A DNA stretch of 59,941 nt from a virus. The notes beneath the pieces were generated by a model. That model had not been told where the DNA came from, did not search any database, and saw nothing but the letters and a program-made list of their open reading frames with translations. Of this stretch, positions 1,044 to 14,597 are shown one piece after another (position 1 is the first letter of the stretch; every line of letters starts with the position of its first letter). The stretch lies in the IMG/VR virus record IMGVR_UViG_3300037502_003163, positions 1 to 59,941 of that record; one strand, 5' to 3'. The position numbers and the translations under genes are program-made.

Positions 1044-1223
1044 ATGAGCCGCACCTTTATTGAACGACAAGTGTCCTACTTTTATGCTATCGAGCGACGC
1101 GACGCGTGCATTGACCGGTGCCGGAACAGACCAGACTGTAGGGCAATTGCTTTGAAGCCGTACGCTAGTGCAGATGGTACGATGGTGTACCCTGTTGAAA
1201 TCACGTACTATAGTCTCGATTAA
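1044..1223 (+). CDS. Small Cys-containing hypothetical protein (59 aa)
   Basis: ATG at 1044 follows GGAAGGAAT in a leader resembling those at 3161-3183 and 3671-3695 (ACTGAAAGGAAT type). The product contains three cysteines within residues 22-32 (ACIDRCRNRPDC), which could bind a metal or form disulfides. No homology recognised. It is the last gene before the second copy of the intergenic module. Confidence 0.5.
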   Translation: MSRTFIERQVSYFYAIERRDACIDRCRNRPDCRAIALKPYASADGTMVYPVEITYYSLD

Positions 1224-1241
1224 TCAGGTAAAGGGTACAAT

Positions 1242-1350
1242 GCTCCGCAGGACAGGAAATGAGCGAAGCGAAATTTACTAAAATAGTACTCAAGTTTTTC
1301 TTTCAGTGTGCCGAAGAGTAAATATACAACGCAGCAGGACGCTGCTAGTA
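1242..1350 (+). promoter_or_regulatory. Duplicated intergenic module, copy B
   Basis: This is the diverged partner of 137-245. It keeps GCTCCGCAG, GAAGC, AAGTTTTT (1292-1299), TGTGCCGAAGAGTAAATATA (1307-1326) and the GCAG-CAGGAC block, but the strong hairpin of copy A is reduced to TACTA-AAA-TAGTA before the T run. AT-rich TAAATATA could serve as a -10-like element. Likely a regulatory leader for the 1474-2874 genes. Confidence 0.45.
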
Positions 1351-1391
1351 GATACCAAAGTACCTTCATTGTATCCGCTAGGATATGCCCC

Positions 1392-1440
1392 GGTCAAGGC
1401 CAATCACCCCAGGCTCACGGACGAGCCTCCTCCCTTGACC
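1392..1440 (+). ncRNA. Two-tier hairpin in the 5' leader of the GP88-like gene
   Basis: GGTCAAGG (1392-1399) pairs perfectly with CCTTGACC (1433-1440). Inside it AGGCTC (1411-1416) pairs with GAGCCT (1423-1428) around an ACGGAC loop. The structure ends 33 bases before the ATG at 1474, whose ribosome site is GGAGGTG. It is long and perfect enough to suggest a folded mRNA leader that controls translation or protects the message. A protein-binding DNA site is the alternative. Confidence 0.5.
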
Positions 1441-1473
1441 ACATGATACCATAATTATGTACGGAGGTGTGAG

Positions 1474-2175
1474 ATGACAATATATAATAATACCCGTCAA
1501 TTCATTCTCGACAAATACTCCATCGACCTTAACAACGAGCAGCCCGACTATCGCCTAAGTGATGGCAATACTAAGCTGAAAAAAGACGGCATTGTATCGT
1601 TCAATCTGATACCCATTGTCCACTGCCCAATGGCGGGAGCCTGTAAAAGCTTTTGTTATGCTACCGTTGGCCAGCAGGCATTCAAGAATGGGGTCCTTCG
1701 CCGTGCTCGGGCATTTCTAGCCACCCAACAAGCAGACTTCGTTCCGAGAATGGTGGCCGAGGTACAGCGAGCCGTTACTCGGGGTGCTAAGGCAGTCCGC
1801 GTTCATGATTCAGGAGACTTCTATTCTTATGAGTATCTGCTCCAATGGTTCGAGATAGCTCGAGCCAATCCGGACACCCGTTTCTACGCATACACTAAGA
1901 TGGTTTCTTTGGTTCGGATGGCATATAAAGCCGGTATCGTTCCGTCTAACTTCAGACTGATTCAATCCTTAGGCGGCATTGCAGATAAACAAGTAGACTG
2001 GTCTTTGCCTCACAGCAGGATATTCGCTTCCCTCGACGAGCTATTAGCCGCAGGGTATGCCGATGCCTCAGAAAGTGATGCACCAGCAGCGTTCAGTGAT
2101 ACGCCAAATGTGGGCTTAATTATTCACGGTGCCAAGTCTAAACGTTTCGATGCTAGTACTATGAACGTAGCTTAA
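1474..2175 (+). CDS. GP88-like phage protein (233 aa)
   Basis: The sequence resembles the phage 'gene product 88' family. A KDGIVSFNLIP-like N-terminal stretch is followed by a Cys-rich motif CPMAGACKSFCYATVG (near residues 51-66) and then a VRVHDSGDFYS motif (near 110). The spaced cysteines suggest a metal or cluster site, but the biochemical role of the family is not established to my knowledge. GGAGGTG seven bases upstream fixes the start. It is followed at 37 bases by the DUF932-like gene, a pairing seen in other phages, and is preceded by a structured leader. Confidence 0.8.
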   Translation: MTIYNNTRQFILDKYSIDLNNEQPDYRLSDGNTKLKKDGIVSFNLIPIVHCPMAGACKSFCYATVGQQAFKNGVLRRARAFLATQQADFVPRMVAEVQRAVTRGAKAVRVHDSGDFYSYEYLLQWFEIARANPDTRFYAYTKMVSLVRMAYKAGIVPSNFRLIQSLGGIADKQVDWSLPHSRIFASLDELLAAGYADASESDAPAAFSDTPNVGLIIHGAKSKRFDASTMNVA

Positions 2176-2211
2176 TAGCAGATAACACCATACAAATATA
2201 TGGAGATTCCC

Positions 2212-2874
2212 ATGAGTAACTTCTTCGCCGTCAACCACAGCCAATTGTCCGATGACTTAGCAGTGGCTTTGCCCAACTACCGGATTGCCCACTACCCTCG
2301 GACTAGTATCAGCAATAAGACTAAACAGGTAAAGGGCACCAAGCACCTTTACCGCCTACGCAGCGAGCACCTTTTCAAGGTCGGCAATGATTTAGTCACC
2401 CCGATGGTGGTGCTCCGTGACCAGACCTTCCCAGGCGCAGCGCTGAAATTGCACGTCGGGTTATACCGTCTCGTGTGTAGCAATGGCCTGCTAGGTGTTG
2501 CTATCAGCGAGCCCACTGTTCGGATACCACACTTTACTAACAGGAAGGAGCAGCTTGAGGGTATTGCCGCAGCAATCTTCGACGCCTCAGCGAGAATGGA
2601 ATCTATTATCGAGACGGCCAATACCTTGACCACTATCCAGGTAAAGGCACCGACTACTGTTGTCGAGTCGCTTGGCTTGCCTAAGACGCTGGTCGAGAAG
2701 CTATTACTCGGTGTCAAAGCCGGCAATGTCCGTCCGGAAGACGATATCACCACGGTATGGGGCCTATACAACTATATTAATGAGACGATGTTTAGCCGTA
2801 CCCGAAGCGTGTTCGCTGCAGTAGACCGGGACACGACACTGGTCAGCCAAATCATCACAGCCAATGCAGCGTAA
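2212..2874 (+). CDS. DUF932-like phage/plasmid protein (220 aa)
   Basis: The arrangement matches DUF932 proteins found on phages and plasmids. It has an N-terminal part with TKHLYRLRS, then MVVLRDQTF-like and LYRLVCSNGLLG motifs (near residues 75-95). A long helical region and a C-terminal YNYINETM motif follow. I chose the ATG at 2212 because GGAGA lies just upstream; an in-frame ATG at 2200 has no such site. Function unknown. The gene is probably co-transcribed with the GP88-like gene and ends just before a CAGGTAAAG copy and a leader hairpin. Confidence 0.75.
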   Translation: MSNFFAVNHSQLSDDLAVALPNYRIAHYPRTSISNKTKQVKGTKHLYRLRSEHLFKVGNDLVTPMVVLRDQTFPGAALKLHVGLYRLVCSNGLLGVAISEPTVRIPHFTNRKEQLEGIAAAIFDASARMESIIETANTLTTIQVKAPTTVVESLGLPKTLVEKLLLGVKAGNVRPEDDITTVWGLYNYINETMFSRTRSVFAAVDRDTTLVSQIITANAA

Positions 2875-2890
2875 TCAGGTAAAGAACACA

Positions 2891-2924
2891 ACCGTGAAGG
2901 GCACGATAGTGCCCGATACAGGAG
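2891..2924 (+). ncRNA. Ribosome-site hairpin element, copy 1
   Basis: ACCGTGAAG is followed by a GGGCAC-GATA-GTGCCC hairpin (2899-2914) and then CGATACAGGAG, the ribosome site of the gene at 2931. The same flanks with a different stem occur at 8768-8810. Changed stem bases with preserved pairing support an RNA structure next to the start codon. Confidence 0.6.
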
Positions 2925-2930
2925 ACCACT

Positions 2931-3158
2931 ATGACACCGAATCAAATCAAGAAAGCCGAACAACTCTTAGCCAAGAGAAAGGAACTATTGACGTTAAAGG
3001 ACCGGAATGGTTGCGCGGTAGGTGAAATACGTCCCGAGCTCGATAGTCGATACCAAAAACAGCCCGTTCTCGTTATCCAGACCAACACCGTCTCACTCGA
3101 AACACTAGAACGGTGGATAAAGCAGGCCAAGACTGCACAAAAAAAGAATATTCTTTAA
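2931..3158 (+). CDS. Small basic hypothetical protein (75 aa)
   Basis: ATG at 2931 follows AGGAG with a hairpin directly upstream. The product is Lys/Arg rich with an N-terminal helix (KKAEQLLAKRKELL) and a C-terminal helix (LETLERWIKQAKTAQKK). It could be nucleic-acid binding, but no family is recognised. It lies between the DUF932-like gene and the MGYTHYW protein. Confidence 0.55.
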   Translation: MTPNQIKKAEQLLAKRKELLTLKDRNGCAVGEIRPELDSRYQKQPVLVIQTNTVSLETLERWIKQAKTAQKKNIL

Positions 3159-3183
3159 CAGATAACGACTGAAAGGAATTATC

Positions 3184-3663
3184 GTGGGATACACACATTA
3201 CTGGACTTTCAATTTCAAAGCAGGTAAAGCGTCCGACCTCGAAGCGAAATATCAGAAGGCTATTCTGGAATGCCAAAAGGTAGTCCGGGCCATTGCTGAG
3301 GATAACCGAAAGGTGTATGGTAGCTCGTGTCTGAGTGGGTACACTGCCCACTGTACGCCGGGACAATACGGCGGTATCAAGGTAAACGGTAAAGGTGATG
3401 ATAGCTGCGAGGACTTCTTTCTGAGGGAGCACTTTCGCGAGAATGAGGAGAGAAACTTTTGTAAAACTAGGCAGTATACTTATGATACAGCGGTCGTGGC
3501 TTGTCTCGCTGTACTCAAGTACAGACTGGGAGATGCTATCACCATCACCAGCGATGGGACATCTCTAGACTGGGAAGAAGGGGCAAACTTTGCAGCGAAA
3601 GTACTGAAACGGAAGGTAAAGATACCATCAACTATATTCCATGTTCTCCGCTTAGCTAGGTAA
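3184..3663 (+). CDS. Conserved phage hypothetical, MGYTHYW type (159 aa)
   Basis: The GTG start at 3184 follows GAAAGGAATTATC. The protein opens with MGYTHYWTF, a signature I recognise from hypothetical proteins in diverse phages. It has three cysteines in the first half and an LRLGD-like alpha/beta C-terminal half. No catalytic motif is evident. Its leader sequence is nearly repeated before the genes at 1044, 3696 and 15184, suggesting a shared translation signal. Confidence 0.65.
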   Translation: MGYTHYWTFNFKAGKASDLEAKYQKAILECQKVVRAIAEDNRKVYGSSCLSGYTAHCTPGQYGGIKVNGKGDDSCEDFFLREHFRENEERNFCKTRQYTYDTAVVACLAVLKYRLGDAITITSDGTSLDWEEGANFAAKVLKRKVKIPSTIFHVLRLAR

Positions 3664-3695
3664 ACAGAAAAGACAATGACTGAAAGGAATTGGCT

Positions 3696-4052
3696 ATGAT
3701 TACCACTATCATCAACGTCATCGGCATCGTCATCATCACCGTCCTCCTATTAATGGGAGCCTTAAACTTGTACTTGATTGTCCGCTCCTGGTTCACGCCT
3801 CAAGTTGACCCATCCCGTCTCCAATATGCGAGACTCAGACTGGAATGGGAGAGCAATTGTGTCACGTATAAAGTAGTACCCTACTATGATGAAAAGACAC
3901 TAGAAATATCTACGATGTTGGCAGCAGCTATTTCGATGAGGGAGGAGACTGATGGCGAAGGGAAGCGCTATGTCCAAGACAAGGTAAAGGCCGTCACTGT
4001 AGTCCACAAGAATTGGCCCCGTCCCACGGCCACCGATGCCGGGGAGGCATGA
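3696..4052 (+). CDS. Single-pass membrane protein (118 aa)
   Basis: One strong N-terminal membrane segment (about residues 4-28, Ile/Val/Leu rich) is followed by a charged cytoplasmic or periplasmic tail. I chose ATG 3696 over TTG 3690 because ACTGAAAGGAAT lies upstream at normal spacing. Possible spanin, holin-like or host-membrane modifying protein. There is no further evidence, although it lies about 1.6 kb before the transglycosylase. Confidence 0.55.
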   Translation: MITTIINVIGIVIITVLLLMGALNLYLIVRSWFTPQVDPSRLQYARLRLEWESNCVTYKVVPYYDEKTLEISTMLAAAISMREETDGEGKRYVQDKVKAVTVVHKNWPRPTATDAGEA

Positions 4053-4053
4053 T

Positions 4054-4230
4054 ATGCCGACTAAGACCGAAACCTTTTATCTCGAGGTAGAGAGCGAAGC
4101 TCTACAGTTTGTGAGCAAATGTTCCGAAGAGGACATCACTGCCGTGATGTTGCCGGTCGAAGACCATGACGGCAGGAAGTACTACCCGGTAAAAGTTACC
4201 TTTGACCCCGCTTTGCTAAAGAAAAAGTAA
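4054..4230 (+). CDS. Small hypothetical protein (58 aa)
   Basis: ATG 4054 follows GGGAGG and starts immediately after the preceding stop. The product has a YPVKVTFDP motif near the end. The next gene shows YPIHLVFTDE at the matching place and a similar FxxExE start, so the two may be tandem paralogues. Function unknown. Confidence 0.5.
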   Translation: MPTKTETFYLEVESEALQFVSKCSEEDITAVMLPVEDHDGRKYYPVKVTFDPALLKKK

Positions 4231-4254
4231 CCAGTTTATACAGGAGCAAATGAA

Positions 4255-4470
4255 ATGCGCGACCTACCCGGCTTCCAAAACATCGCCTACTTTGACACCG
4301 AATGGGAACGTGATTTGTTCATCAGCAATGTTGAAGGCATACCCGAAGTGTTAATTACTAAGCTAGAAGTCATCACTAGGGATGACGTACCCATGTACCC
4401 GATTCACCTCGTCTTTACAGATGAGGAGACCCCTAGCGAGTTGCCACCCATCGTGACTACCCCTTTCTGA
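4255..4470 (+). CDS. Small hypothetical protein (71 aa)
   Basis: ATG 4255 follows ACAGGAG. The acidic alpha/beta protein resembles the previous 58-aa product: an aromatic/acidic beginning (FDTEWERDLFISN) and a YPIHLVFTDE ending. This is probably a product of local duplication. No known domain. Confidence 0.5.
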   Translation: MRDLPGFQNIAYFDTEWERDLFISNVEGIPEVLITKLEVITRDDVPMYPIHLVFTDEETPSELPPIVTTPF

Positions 4471-9026: not shown

Positions 9027-11294
9027 ATGGACTCAGTTACCCTCACCACTCATCCCCGTTTCGTTCTCTTAGAACCGCGCTCCGTACCTCCGCGCGTTGG
9101 CGAATCGTACCAACGGGTATGTCCCACCGGACGGGAGGTAGAGAACTTACTCCGCGCCGCGTTCCAATCACCGTTCATAGCAGTCGACTTCGAGACGAAG
9201 GGCAATGACTATTCCCTTCCCGTTGACGATGCCCACGTCATTGGTGTCGGCCTCGCTTGGGACAGGGGCAGCTGCTACTTGGACCCCTCCAGCCTATCTG
9301 CCACGGAGTGGCGTCTCCTTGACCGGATTTTCCTAGAGCATAAAGGCTTGCTTGCCCACAATGTTTACTTTGACGGGGGCTGGCTACGCCGAGACTATGG
9401 CATCCATCCCGGGTGGTACGCGTGTACGTATGGTATGTATATGCAGCTCGCTAGTGAGGGCTTTGAAGGACAGAGATGGGGCCTCAAAGATGCAATGACA
9501 GACTTGTTAATGTGGAGTAGCACCAACGAAACCGACCTCGACAATTGGTTAGTCAGTAACGGCTACAAGAATCAAAGCCATCGTCCCCTAAAGGGCGAGA
9601 TGTGGAGGGCACCATCAGATATCCTCGGGAAGTATTGTGTGCTCGATGCCGAGGCAACCTATCTACTCTTCACCGAAATCTTTCAACCCGTACTGGACAA
9701 GTTTCCATCGGTACTCCAATACCACCGCGATGACTTCCTCCCTCACGTCATGATTCACATCGACCAAAAGATGCATGGCATACTAACGGACCGCCAGCAT
9801 TGGCTGCGGTATACTTCGGAACTAGTCGGCTCCATCGCTGCCAGTGAACACGCCTTCCGCAACCATGAACGGGTCGCCCCATTGATTGCCGAATGGGAAG
9901 CGAAGAAGATGGCTACCTTCCTCGAGAAGGAACCACCCCAGTTCAAGAAAGGGAAGGAAAGGAAGGAGCCCCCCCGCCTGACTAAGAGCGGGGAAGTCAG
10001 CAAGAATTGGTTGAAGTGGTATGAGCTCAGTCAGCGGCCGCCCGAGATAAACAATAACTGGTTGAAGTGGCGAGAAAAGAAATCTCAAATTGACCGGGGG
10101 GAATTGTCCGACTACAAGTTTAACTTGCAGTCCGGGGACCACCTGAGGTGGCTCCTTTATGACCAGCTCAAGTTTCCAACCAAGCTCGAAACGGATAGCG
10201 GGTTGCCTGCTGTTAGCGAGGACGCCCTCCAGTCGATGGGAGATATCGGCCAAATACTTATTGGCCGGGCACTAAAGGTCAAGGAGTTATCCTATGTTGA
10301 GGACTATGTGGAACGTACTGAAACGAGGCCTACTCTCCATCCCTCGTTCCGGATGCCGGGTACAGTTACGGGTAGACTTGCTGGCAAGGAACCCAATCTT
10401 CAACAGTTGCCAAAGACTAAAGGAACACTTACTGGTCTCATATCCCGGCCTGGTCATTCGTTTGTGGACTGTGATGTTAACGCTTTGGAGATGGTTGTTA
10501 CTGCTGAGTTGAGTCAAGACAGGAATCTCCTTTCCCTCTACGGGCCAGGAGCGCAACCCAACGATATTTATACATTCTATGGCAGTATGATGGCAGGTAT
10601 CGGACCCAAGCTAACGTCACTAGGTTACGACCCATACAAGCCAGTTAAAGAAATACTGGATGCAACTAAAAAAGCCTTCAAGAAGGAACGTTCCATTGCG
10701 AAGCTGCTCATCCTGTCGGATAACTACGGCTCCGGTGTCAAGAAGAAACAGAAAATCTTGTCCCTCAACGGTGTGGATATGACCCTCCGGGAAGTCGAGG
10801 CTATGCACCAATCTCTAATGGAGGCCAAAGCCGGAGTCCTTGCTTACGTTGAATGGTTACGGGATGAATGGAGAGCCAATGGGGGCTGGATAGAAAACGG
10901 GTATGGACGCCCCATCTGCGTGGATGAGAAGTACGAAAAGGATTTATTAAATCGCTGCCTGGCGGCGGGCACACTAGTACACACAAAGCGGGGACTGGTT
11001 CCAATTGAGCAGGTTACTAATGATGACGTAGTTTGGGACGGACATGAATGGGTGACACATTCTGGCGTGATATTCAAAGGGGTACAAGAAGTCATAACAG
11101 TTAATAGTGTTGACATGACCCCGGACCATGCTATCTTTATTGATGAGCACAACAAGAAGGAGGCTCAATATGTCGGACAACTGGATAGCGTCCTCGAAAC
11201 CACACCCGGAAATAATTGGTCAACGCTTTGGAGACTTTGTTGTAGTGTCGCATATCTACTGGCGAAGAAATGGAAAAGGTCCTGCATACGTTGA
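9027..11294 (+). CDS. Family A DNA polymerase, N-terminal part fused to an N-intein (755 aa)
   Basis: The 3'-5' exonuclease domain shows Exo I VDFETKG (D54, E56), Exo II LLAHNVYFDGG (near 109-118) and Exo III YCVLDAEATYLLF (near 210). The polymerase domain has GRLAGKEPNLQQLP, motif A FVDCDVNALEMVV (near 480) and motif B KKERSIAKLLILSDNYGSG (near 555). The frame then enters an intein at Cys644 (codon 10956-10958): block A is AAGTLVHTKRGLVPIEQV and block B is VNSVDMTPDHAIF. Motif C is absent and lies in the gene at 11702. About 45 residues after block B look degenerate and overlap the HNH gene. The start has AGGTGAAGC upstream. Expected to be joined to its partner by trans-splicing. Confidence 0.85.
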   Translation: MDSVTLTTHPRFVLLEPRSVPPRVGESYQRVCPTGREVENLLRAAFQSPFIAVDFETKGNDYSLPVDDAHVIGVGLAWDRGSCYLDPSSLSATEWRLLDRIFLEHKGLLAHNVYFDGGWLRRDYGIHPGWYACTYGMYMQLASEGFEGQRWGLKDAMTDLLMWSSTNETDLDNWLVSNGYKNQSHRPLKGEMWRAPSDILGKYCVLDAEATYLLFTEIFQPVLDKFPSVLQYHRDDFLPHVMIHIDQKMHGILTDRQHWLRYTSELVGSIAASEHAFRNHERVAPLIAEWEAKKMATFLEKEPPQFKKGKERKEPPRLTKSGEVSKNWLKWYELSQRPPEINNNWLKWREKKSQIDRGELSDYKFNLQSGDHLRWLLYDQLKFPTKLETDSGLPAVSEDALQSMGDIGQILIGRALKVKELSYVEDYVERTETRPTLHPSFRMPGTVTGRLAGKEPNLQQLPKTKGTLTGLISRPGHSFVDCDVNALEMVVTAELSQDRNLLSLYGPGAQPNDIYTFYGSMMAGIGPKLTSLGYDPYKPVKEILDATKKAFKKERSIAKLLILSDNYGSGVKKKQKILSLNGVDMTLREVEAMHQSLMEAKAGVLAYVEWLRDEWRANGGWIENGYGRPICVDEKYEKDLLNRCLAAGTLVHTKRGLVPIEQVTNDDVVWDGHEWVTHSGVIFKGVQEVITVNSVDMTPDHAIFIDEHNKKEAQYVGQLDSVLETTPGNNWSTLWRLCCSVAYLLAKKWKRSCIR

Positions 11295-11862
11295 TGTACA
11301 GTGCGACCACGGAACAAGCAGGCAGTCAATAGACAATTTGCGGACAAGCAAGGTTAGGGGATGTAAACTTTGTTTTCAAAAACGAAATGGATTAGTTACT
11401 TTTCAAGATGAGACAGACCGTAGACTCTTTAAGCACTATAAGTCCATCTACAACCGCACTACTTACGCCGGTGTTAATGGTTACCATAACTATGGAGGAG
11501 CCGGTATTACCTTGTGTGACGCATGGAAAAACAATCCCCGCGCCTTTATTGATTATGTTAAGGAACTTCCAGGATACTCGGTAGGAAAGACTCTTGACCG
11601 AATAGATAATGAGAAGGGATACATGCCCGGCAATCTGCGGTGGGCAACGCGAAAAGAGCAAGCATACAACAGACGAGACACAATTAAAGTGAGGTGGAAT
11701 AATGAGGACATCTCTTTCAAAGATTTTGCTGAACGATATACCGACCTATCTCAGTCGCAGGCTCTTGCGCTTTGGCATAAAGGCTGGACTCTTCAACAAC
11801 TCGTCGACCACGTCCCAAAAGAAATCGGTGCCCGTGTACGATATAATAAACGCAGGGCCTAG
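11170..11862 (+). CDS. HNH homing endonuclease inserted between split-intein halves (230 aa)
   Basis: ATG 11170 follows AAGAAGGAGG inside the end of the polymerase-N frame. The N-terminal part resembles IGQRFGDFVVVS-type leaders with a Cys pair (residues 50-80). The HNH core shows YGGAGITLCDAW, KTLDRIDNEKGY and NLRWATRKEQ, the usual pattern of phage HNH enzymes. A C-terminal helical segment may be a DNA-recognition module. It occupies a third reading frame relative to both polymerase halves. Likely role: cutting intein-free polymerase alleles so the whole element is copied in. Confidence 0.85.
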   Translation: MSDNWIASSKPHPEIIGQRFGDFVVVSHIYWRRNGKGPAYVDVQCDHGTSRQSIDNLRTSKVRGCKLCFQKRNGLVTFQDETDRRLFKHYKSIYNRTTYAGVNGYHNYGGAGITLCDAWKNNPRAFIDYVKELPGYSVGKTLDRIDNEKGYMPGNLRWATRKEQAYNRRDTIKVRWNNEDISFKDFAERYTDLSQSQALALWHKGWTLQQLVDHVPKEIGARVRYNKRRA

Positions 11863-12181
11863 ACGTAGATTTACAGTTCAAGGAACTAAAACCTTTGTAG
11901 TCTCGAACTGCGTGCAATCAACAGGCCACGATATCTTACAACTTTGGGCCAGGATAACAGCGAGGCGGTTGACCGAAGCGGAGATAAACTGGAAGCCCAC
12001 AGTCTGGGATTGGCACGATGAAATCATCATCGAAGTTCCAGATAGTCAAGTGGCGTTGGCGAAACATATTATGGAAGTTGATTCTTTTGCTGAACTTAAC
12101 CAGATACTCGGAGGAACTTGTCCCTTGAAAGGGAGTGCCGCTGTGGCGAAGACACTAGCCGGCATTAAATTGGAGGAGTAA
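11702..12181 (+). CDS. C-intein fused to the C-terminal part of family A DNA polymerase (159 aa)
   Basis: Residues 1-69 end in intein blocks F and G: VPVYDIINAG, then FTVQG and TFVVSN, with Asn69 just before Cys70 (codon 11909-11911), the first extein residue. The penultimate residue is Ser instead of the usual His. The extein then continues QSTGHDILQLW, the expected partner of the N-half end, and motif C DWHDEIIIEV (H105, D106, E107). GAGGTG at 11691-11696 gives a strong ribosome site for ATG 11702, inside the HNH gene in another frame. Alone it cannot polymerise; trans-splicing with the N-half would restore the enzyme. Confidence 0.85.
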   Translation: MRTSLSKILLNDIPTYLSRRLLRFGIKAGLFNNSSTTSQKKSVPVYDIINAGPRRRFTVQGTKTFVVSNCVQSTGHDILQLWARITARRLTEAEINWKPTVWDWHDEIIIEVPDSQVALAKHIMEVDSFAELNQILGGTCPLKGSAAVAKTLAGIKLEE

Positions 12182-12472: not shown

Positions 12473-12964
12473 ATGAAACAATTATTACTCCTTACTTTAC
12501 TTGTCGGCTGTGGTGTGGAGCAGGCTTGTCAAAGCAGTGGCAGGGTCAGTCGCCGGACACCCAGGATAGGGGACTGTACCCCGGAGCAGGTTAGTCCTCG
12601 CATCAATCCACAACTCCAGTACGCGGTAGAGCTATTCTCAAATGATGCCACCCGACACGAGGTACCCTGCCAGACTACTCCCATTGTCGGGTTCTCATCC
12701 GATATGGGCCCGGATAAGAAGAAGGGTGTGGTCGGGTACTGCATTGATAGTTGGGAGGTGCGAGTCTTGACCAGCTATTGGCAGACCGCTTCAGCTACCG
12801 ACCGACTCCTCCTCATGTACCACGAACTGGGCCATTGCGCTCTTGGTCTTGACCATCTCGATGGTGAGATTGATATCATGAATAGCTACCTCTTAGATGA
12901 CGTCACCGCTGAAAAGGAGTGGGACGATTTAGTAAACAAGATGTTTGAAAGGAAGAAGAAATGA
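12473..12964 (+). CDS. Lipoprotein zinc metallopeptidase (163 aa)
   Basis: The signal MKQLLLLTLLVGC gives a lipobox with Cys13. The body carries HELGHCALGLDH (H117, E118, H121 and H128 as ligand candidates), followed by a Met-turn-like DIMNS (M136), the pattern of matrixin/astacin-like zincins. The protein should be anchored in the envelope and cleave a periplasmic or outer-membrane protein. RBS GTGGAGG is close. Such enzymes are rare in phages. Possible jobs are superinfection exclusion, lysis or modification of surface proteins; none is proven. Confidence 0.7.
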   Translation: MKQLLLLTLLVGCGVEQACQSSGRVSRRTPRIGDCTPEQVSPRINPQLQYAVELFSNDATRHEVPCQTTPIVGFSSDMGPDKKKGVVGYCIDSWEVRVLTSYWQTASATDRLLLMYHELGHCALGLDHLDGEIDIMNSYLLDDVTAEKEWDDLVNKMFERKKK

Positions 12965-13527: not shown

Positions 13528-13784
13528 GCGAATACTACGTTACAGTAGATACCGTTGAACAGGACGGCTCGGAGTGGAACCACTTACTACGGCTCGTCAT
13601 CCGGGGCCAAGAGTATCTGGTCTCGGCTACCACGCCTACGGCGTTGGGACGGAGCGGGGACCGGCTCTGGTTGACGTGGTCCTCGATGGACTGTCACACT
13701 GTTACCACAATCGAGGAAGCTCCTGGTAAGTTTGTTACAGGTCGAATCAAACTTTGTACCGCTTTTGATGTGAGGAAGACATGA
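13524..13784 (+). CDS. Hypothetical protein (86 aa)
   Basis: ATG overlaps the previous stop. Predicted mostly beta, with aromatic residues and a conserved-looking WLTWSSMDCHT segment. Not recognised. Its TGA overlaps the resolvase ATG. Confidence 0.5.
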   Translation: MSEYYVTVDTVEQDGSEWNHLLRLVIRGQEYLVSATTPTALGRSGDRLWLTWSSMDCHTVTTIEEAPGKFVTGRIKLCTAFDVRKT

Positions 13785-14362
13785 AACAAATATCCGACAT
13801 TCATAAGACAACTAAAATATACAAGGAAGTTGAGAAGTTGAGGGGACCGTTAGTGTACGGGAACGTTCTCAGTATTGACCCGTCAATTGGCAGCACTTCT
13901 TCCTCCCCTGGATGGGCATATTACCAAGCTGGAAAGCTGATTGATAGCGGCGTCATCCATACTGGGGGTTCCCATCTCGAGCTTTGGCAGAGGGCACGCC
14001 GGCTCGGGGATGCCCTTCGCGCCTTGTGTAATGAGTATAAAGTAGACGTCCTCATTTACGAAGACATTCCCGCCACTTCCGGCTTCAATCAAAATGCTAT
14101 CGCTAGTCTTCTCAAAGCGGTCGGAGTTGTGCTATCATGTACTACCAGCTCCCACGTGTTGGGAATTCACCCCGCATCTTGGAAGAATTATGTCCGACCA
14201 GAATATAAAAAGGGAGACAAAGAAGACGCCATCGAAATCGGATGGGTCGCAATCAGTCTCGCCCAATGGATTGAAGCAATCACTACCGAGCGAAGTTCGG
14301 GTGCTGGGGAGGACGTTCAGAGTGGAGATGGCCAGCCTCGACGAAGAGGACGTGCTCGGTGA
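13781..14362 (+). CDS. RuvC-like Holliday-junction resolvase (193 aa)
   Basis: RNase H-fold motifs in order: VLSIDPSIG (D33), SSPGWAYY, LIYEDIP (E94) and KKGDKEDAIEIG (D146 or D149). These are the acidic residues of RuvC-type nucleases. It would resolve branched DNA during replication or before packaging. The final 35 residues are Arg/Gly rich and lie over the start of the zincin gene in a different frame, so the last part may not be functional. Confidence 0.75.
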   Translation: MKQISDIHKTTKIYKEVEKLRGPLVYGNVLSIDPSIGSTSSSPGWAYYQAGKLIDSGVIHTGGSHLELWQRARRLGDALRALCNEYKVDVLIYEDIPATSGFNQNAIASLLKAVGVVLSCTTSSHVLGIHPASWKNYVRPEYKKGDKEDAIEIGWVAISLAQWIEAITTERSSGAGEDVQSGDGQPRRRGRAR

Positions 14363-14597
14363 TACAGTTGGCCTCTACCGGAGGATAAGGGTCAGCCAAG
14401 ACCTGACTAGGAAGCAACAATGGACAACCTTCGTCCACGAGTGGGCACATGCGGTACTATATGTCAACGGCGTCTCATCCGTCATACCAGATGAAGTAGA
14501 AGAAATCATTGTGCAATCTATGGAACACGCGGTAGAGGAACTTCTGGAGCAAGTGGGCGAGGACTTACTGAAACACCTCTCCCTACCCGAGGACTAA
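14190..14597 (+). CDS. Zincin-like metallopeptidase, ImmA/IrrE-like core (135 aa)
   Basis: FVHEWAHAVLY gives HExxH (H83, E84, H87), and EEIIVQSMEHA downstream provides a possible third Glu ligand. The preceding EVRVLGRTFRVE strand resembles phage ImmA/IrrE-type proteins. Such proteases often cleave repressors or antitoxins. The start is uncertain: ATG 14190 overlaps the resolvase gene by 173 bases, while a TTG near 14271 would shorten it. No signal peptide, so it should be cytoplasmic. Confidence 0.65.
   Translation: MSDQNIKRETKKTPSKSDGSQSVSPNGLKQSLPSEVRVLGRTFRVEMASLDEEDVLGDTVGLYRRIRVSQDLTRKQQWTTFVHEWAHAVLYVNGVSSVIPDEVEEIIVQSMEHAVEELLEQVGEDLLKHLSLPED

What the first reader, a model, noticed from the sequence alone, without database searches (positions are those of the whole stretch)
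9027..12181. Family A DNA polymerase split by a trans-splicing intein with an HNH gene lodged between the halves
Seen: exonuclease, motif A and motif B end in an intein N-part at Cys644. A gene at 11702 begins with intein blocks F/G ending Ser-Asn, then Cys+1 and polymerase motif C HDE. A complete HNH gene in a third frame lies between. Known: split inteins with a free-standing homing endonuclease ('fractured genes') have been described from metagenomic phage-like data. Inference: the extein junction R-C-V-Q-S-T-G-H-D-I falls in the conserved Q-x-T-x-x-D-I region of the family, so activity depends wholly on trans-splicing.
Basis: partly seen in the sequence, partly recalled or inferred. Interest (0 to 1): 0.88.

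Follow-up and report, generated by a model that had tools for sequence, protein, structure and literature searches.

The report
Phage polymerase split by trans-splicing intein
In this phage the essential DNA-copying enzyme is encoded as two separate pieces that must be stitched together after translation by a split self-splicing element, with a DNA-cutting gene wedged between the pieces in a third reading frame; comparison with about 130 relatives suggests how such split genes arise.

Summary
Confirmed. Three overlapping + strand ORFs lie in three frames: polA-N plus intein-N (9027-11294), a complete HNH gene (11170-11862) and intein-C plus polA-C (11702-12181). Joined exteins align without a gap to an intein-free relative (L002; 733 aa, 71% identity, 83.5 kDa). 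Profiles built without the window hit both intein halves and the HNH. A second phage (L004, about 65% identical DNA in the exteins) has the same arrangement, so it is not a sequencing error. Intein-frame stops between the halves equal random expectation: the intein is truly split. At both overlaps HNH-frame synonymous change falls from 0.85 to about 0.22-0.26, and both frames resist amino-acid change, so all three reading frames look translated.

The wider finding: among 134 related phage inteins fetched, 105 are contiguous with an HNH overprinted in another frame of an intein frame kept stop-free (0 stops observed, 5.2 expected each); none has the HNH in frame. Nine are broken, all in family A polymerases; two carry GIY-YIG instead of HNH. 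On the HNH tree the broken state needs 3-5 separate changes.

This is a 'fractured gene' (Dassa et al. 2009), a known kind, but a new variant with dual-coding overlaps and sister inteins carrying out-of-frame HNH genes. Splicing itself is untested.

The parts
9027..10955 (+). N-extein of family A DNA polymerase (3'-5' exonuclease, motifs A and B), residues 1-643
   Evidence: Pfam PF01612, PF00476; PHROG 17; aligns with L002-L005
10956..11291 (+). Split intein N-half (Cys1, block B TPDH, then a tail overlapping the HNH gene); stop TGA 11292-11294. By the model of a contiguous relative the Hint part ends near residue 90; the rest (about 11230-11291) is an extra tail
   Evidence: leave-out profile E 9.9e-25; AF2 model of a relative; stop conserved in L004
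11157..11163 (+). Shine-Dalgarno AAGGAGG of the HNH gene, 6 nt before ATG 11170
   Evidence: sequence; conserved in L004
11170..11862 (+). Free-standing HNH endonuclease gene, 230 aa, third frame; zinc-binding-like N part, DRID..N..N HNH motif, C-terminal helix-turn-helix-like part
   Evidence: PHROG 374 E 7.6e-35 and 3377; AF2 pLDDT 86; alignment with 16 other such HNHs
11170..11294 (+). Overlap 1: intein-N tail and HNH 5' end coded in two frames, both constrained
   Evidence: HNH-frame pS 0.26 against 0.85 in the HNH-only part; N-frame pN/pS 0.11/0.22
11691..11695 (+). Shine-Dalgarno GAGGT of the polA-C ORF, 6 nt before ATG 11702; L004 has GGAG, 7 nt before its ATG
11702..11862 (+). Overlap 2: leader of the C-half and HNH 3' end coded in two frames
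   Evidence: HNH-frame pS 0.22; C-frame pN/pS 0.10/0.20
11702..12181 (+). polA-C ORF: leader, intein C-half and C-extein, 159 aa
11828..11908 (+). Core of the intein C-half, blocks F and G (VPVYDIINAGPRRRF...VVSN)
   Evidence: leave-out profile E 1.5e-9; no amino-acid change against L004 in 11861-11908
11909..12178 (+). C-extein, Cys+1 then VQSTGHDI and motif C WHDE; 90 aa
   Evidence: gapless join with L002; PF00476 C-part

Best explanation
The phage makes its family A polymerase as two polypeptides from overlapping genes. Each half ends or begins in one half of a split class-1 (Cys1, Asn, Cys+1) intein; the halves find each other, form one Hint fold, splice out and join residue 643 to Cys+1, giving an active 733-aa polymerase. 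The HNH gene between them, translated from its own start in a third frame, is a homing endonuclease that would cut intein-free polA alleles such as L002 and copy the whole cassette into them. The arrangement most likely derives from a contiguous intein with an HNH overprinted in another frame: once the halves could splice in trans, the intein frame over the HNH no longer had to stay open and filled with stops. Shown by sequence: anatomy, homology, conservation in a second phage, relaxed intein frame, dual-frame constraint. Inferred: translation of all three, trans-splicing, homing, direction of evolution.
For: Both intein halves hit profiles built without them and keep Cys1, TPDH, Asn and Cys+1 (penultimate Ser also in 38 of 133 of the inteins compared). 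Joined exteins gapless against intein-free L002. Same three-frame cassette in L004, with the same N stop and the same C start carrying a Shine-Dalgarno of different sequence. Stops in the intein frame over the HNH: 18 and 16 observed against 17.3 and 16.1 expected from synonymous shuffles, so that frame is free, while 104 contiguous relatives have 0 against 5.2 expected each. Dual-frame constraint in both overlaps. A contiguous relative is predicted to fold as an intein with a disordered middle. Other split cases with an endonuclease gene between the halves: L040, L055, L115, L127, L133 (HNH), L126, L150 (GIY-YIG).
Against: No experiment; splicing not observed. Only two genomes carry this exact cassette, so the overlap statistics rest on one pair, and the more distant pair L040/L115 does not show leader constraint. 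Pfam and NCBIfam intein models hit only weakly. Penultimate His is Ser. The direction contiguous to split is inferred; the tree counts changes but is unrooted.
Confidence: 0.86

Rival explanations
1. A frameshifted pseudogene or assembly error of an ordinary contiguous intein; the polymerase is really one frame, or is dead.
For: Relatives with one open intein frame are the majority.
Against: L004 from another metagenome has the same frames, the same stop and the same start at saturated synonymous distance. Many stops lie in each intein frame between the halves, not one indel. Exteins are under purifying selection (pN 0.19-0.23, pS over 0.8).
Confidence: 0.02
2. A self-splicing RNA intron carrying the HNH interrupts a contiguous intein, so N and C frames are joined in mRNA.
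For: DNA is most conserved at the two ends of the HNH, as intron cores would be.
Against: No Rfam intron match even at E 10; no unusual RNA stability in the conserved stretches, z -0.05 to 1.38; both ends show protein-type constraint in the intein frames; over a hundred relatives carry the HNH in an intein frame that is open without any intron.
Confidence: 0.03
3. The two polymerase pieces work as a non-covalent complex without splicing, as described for a phage ribonucleotide reductase gene split by a homing endonuclease; the intein remnants are relics.
For: Genes in pieces by endonuclease insertion, working as two peptides, are known (described and cited in PMC10448857).
Against: Intein blocks are conserved on both halves with no catalytic loss, and C-intein 11861-11908 has no amino-acid change between window and L004; relics would decay.
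Confidence: 0.06
4. A rival for one step only: the strong conservation of the overlaps comes from recent recombination or a regulatory DNA element, not from dual coding.
For: Conservation begins about 26 nt before ATG 11702 and runs through the end of the C-intein.
Against: Two separate conserved stretches stop near the N stop codon and start near the C start signals; within them both reading frames avoid amino-acid change (pN/pS about 0.5 against 1.7-1.9 in control frames).
Confidence: 0.2

Closest known systems
Fractured genes (Dassa et al. 2009, doi 10.1093/nar/gkp095; cited from references and own knowledge, text not held)
   Same: Split intein halves on two host-gene pieces with a free-standing homing endonuclease gene between them, in phage-like metagenomic DNA
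   Different: Here the host is a family A polymerase, the nuclease is HNH, and both intein halves overlap the nuclease gene in other frames
Split PolB intein with HNH ORF in Pseudomonas phage MIJ3 (PMC6892783)
   Same: DNA polymerase in two ORFs with split intein blocks and an HNH ORF between
   Different: Family B polymerase and another intein sequence; overlap of frames not described in the passages read
ShiLan domain, hidden out-of-frame HNH in a phage methylase (PMC11855218)
   Same: HNH encoded in another frame of an insertion that stays open in the host frame
   Different: That insertion has no splicing domain; the relatives found here are inteins with the splicing blocks
Contiguous phage polA inteins with overprinted HNH (L015-L022 and IMG/VR loci found here)
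   Same: Same intein family, same HNH family, often the same insertion site before motif C
   Different: Intein frame is continuous; window and L004 have it closed and split
gp41-1 split intein
   Same: Hint fold; appears among PDB matches of a contiguous relative (6qaz, E 6e-3)
   Different: Other host gene and low sequence identity (19%)

Membership tests
Fractured gene with split intein | Host gene in two non-contiguous ORFs whose joined exteins make a complete protein | tested here: met
   gapless 733-aa join against L002
Fractured gene with split intein | N-half with intein blocks A/B and C-half with blocks F/G | tested here: met
   leave-out profiles
Fractured gene with split intein | Free-standing homing endonuclease gene between the halves | tested here: met
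   HNH by PHROG 374 E 7.6e-35, own ATG and Shine-Dalgarno
Fractured gene with split intein | Protein trans-splicing activity | not testable with these tools
   needs expression
Class-1 intein | Cys/Ser1, TxxH in block B, C-terminal Asn, Cys/Ser/Thr+1 | tested here: met
   Cys644, TPDH, Asn69, Cys70; penultimate His replaced by Ser, as in 38 of 133 inteins compared
HNH homing endonuclease | Intact HNH domain | tested here: met
   PHROG hits and alignment; but no significant PDB fold match and no Pfam match
HNH homing endonuclease | Cleaves the intein-free allele and promotes homing | not testable with these tools
   empty site exists in L002, L012, L013
Group I or II intron | Conserved intron RNA core | tested here: not met
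   no Rfam match

The most novel reading that the evidence does not exclude
A large phage intein clade carries its HNH homing gene overprinted out of frame inside the intein rather than fused in frame, and split inteins arise repeatedly from it when the overprinted intein frame is released from staying open. In this phage the out-of-frame tail and leader have then come under protein-level selection, perhaps to help the halves pair.
Probability: 0.55. Interest if true: 0.85.

Novelty: new variant of a known kind. Interest (0 to 1): 0.72.

Why it matters
How split inteins and fractured genes arise is open. Here contiguous, miniature and split forms occur in one intein family, partly at the same polymerase site, so the route can be tested directly. 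It also offers new natural split inteins, and shows that a standard one-frame annotation of phage polymerases can miss an HNH gene.

Tried and rejected
Group I/II intron: Rfam at E 10, nothing; RNA folds no more stable than shuffles. Sequencing error: rejected by L004. Near DNA relatives in the phage collection: none. Start of the C-half at GTG 11828/11834: possible, but no Shine-Dalgarno was found there, whereas ATG 11702 has one in both phages. Testing overlap constraint in a second split pair (L040/L115): too diverged, no leader constraint seen. Fold search of the HNH model: no significant PDB match. Conserved NTG start of the HNH in +2-frame contiguous inteins: may simply come from the conserved Trp codon of the intein frame, so not counted; how the HNH is started in the contiguous forms stays open. 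Literature for out-of-frame HNH in inteins: only the ShiLan paper in the held library; the Gosselin 2025 preprint on non-canonical intein architecture is not held and may overlap.

Full report
Observation. The window is a 59,941-base IMG/VR virus record. Three + strand ORFs overlap in three frames: 9027-11294, 11170-11862 and 11702-12181. The first holds the 3'-5' exonuclease and most of a family A polymerase, then an intein N-part from Cys644. The second is a 230-aa HNH protein (PHROG 374, E 7.6e-35). The third holds a 42-codon leader, intein blocks F and G, Cys+1 and the rest of the polymerase with motif C.

Intein identity. Profiles built from other phage inteins, with the window and L004 left out, hit the N-half (E 9.9e-25), the C-half (E 1.5e-9) and the HNH (E 4.8e-32). 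Joining residues 1-643 to Cys70 onward gives 733 aa that align to the intein-free polymerase of L002 with 524 of 733 identities and no gap across the junction, mass 83.5 kDa. The empty site reads LNR-V-VQSTGHD in L002; the intein-bearing gene has Cys+1 in place of that V. L012, L013 and L164 also lack the intein.

A second phage. L004 carries the same three ORFs in the same frames; N-half intein 69%, HNH 79% and C ORF 76% identical in protein, while synonymous sites in the exteins are saturated (pS over 0.8). The N stop (11292) is conserved. The C start 11702 has GAGGT at 6 nt in the window and GGAG at 7 nt in L004.

Overlaps. In the HNH-only part (11296-11700) the HNH frame has pS 0.85 and pN 0.16. 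In overlap 1 (11170-11292) pS falls to 0.26 and in overlap 2 (11701-11859) to 0.22. The intein frames there have pN/pS of 0.11/0.22 and 0.10/0.20, against 0.35/0.19 and 0.34/0.20 for the same frames in the HNH-only part. Conservation drops close to the N stop and rises about 26 nt before the C start. No RNA structure signal was found and no intron family. The simplest reading is that all three proteins are made and that tail and leader are under selection; this rests on one pair of genomes, and the distant pair L040/L115 does not repeat it for the leader.

Relatives. tblastn with the N-half found the same intein type in polymerases of many phages. In eight of eight large contiguous examples an HNH ORF lies in the +1 or +2 frame inside the intein while the intein frame stays open; a ninth is a 140-aa mini-intein without HNH. 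Pattern scans for the block F motif together with the loci already held gave 134 distinct inteins: 105 contiguous with the HNH out of frame, none with it in frame, 20 contiguous without HNH, nine broken (some entries are near copies). In the 104 contiguous ones tested, 0 stops were seen in the intein frame over the HNH; synonymous shuffles of the HNH predict 5.2 each, and only 1.9 of 104 stop-free by chance. In contiguous pairs the intein frame over the HNH core is no more conserved than the third frame, so it appears to be kept open but otherwise free. AlphaFold of one (L087) gives a confident model for residues 1-95 and 263-293 with a disordered middle; the best PDB match is a DnaX mini-intein, E 3.7e-4.

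Split cases. Besides window and L004: L040, L055, L115, L127 and L133 with HNH, L126 and L150 with GIY-YIG (named here from the sequence motifs, not from a family search), all in family A polymerases. In L127, L133 and L150 the C-half begins with an ATG that overlaps the nuclease gene's stop, and its first residues are already block F. On the HNH tree the split state needs five changes, at least three forced by well supported branches. L133 and L127 use the same site before motif C as the window, as do about twenty contiguous inteins. In window and L004 the stops in the intein frame equal the shuffled expectation (18 against 17.3; 16 against 16.1).

Mechanism. Most likely: independent translation of three overlapping genes, assembly of the two intein halves, splicing to an active polymerase, and HNH-driven homing into intein-free polA alleles. 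Splicing and homing are inferred, not shown.

Placement. This works like, and by every testable feature is, a fractured gene (Dassa et al. 2009); MIJ3 PolB is a close published parallel (PMC6892783). Out-of-frame HNH genes were described in methylase insertions that lack splicing domains (PMC11855218). I found no held paper that describes them inside inteins, but a relevant preprint is not held.

Noticed in passing
L015-L022 and about 97 IMG/VR and bacterial loci: Contiguous phage inteins (mostly in DNA polymerases) with a hidden HNH ORF in another frame; in the annotated phage records looked at, the polymerase is one CDS and no HNH is listed inside it.
   Followed up: yes
L126 (minus strand of the locus, 1092-4312) and L150 329-3751: Family A polymerases split by the same intein type with a GIY-YIG-like nuclease ORF between the halves; the nuclease stop and the C-half start overlap or nearly so.
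   Followed up: partly
L003 5932-9129, L005 5995-9129: The same polymerase with a different, large contiguous intein at another site (NLQQ|C).
   Followed up: no
12473-12964: Lipoprotein-like ORF with HELGHCALGLDH and DIMN, a metzincin-type protease signature; similar ORFs lie near the polymerase in L002, L003, L004 and L005.
   Followed up: no
13781-14362 and 14094-14597: Two ORFs overlapping by about 270 nt in different frames (RuvC-like and HEWAHAVL zinc-peptidase-like, by eye); a shorter overlap of the same pair is seen in L002, L003 and L013.
   Followed up: no
L055, minus strand 1-2924: Two inteins of this family in one polymerase: one split with HNH, one contiguous with an out-of-frame HNH.
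   Followed up: partly
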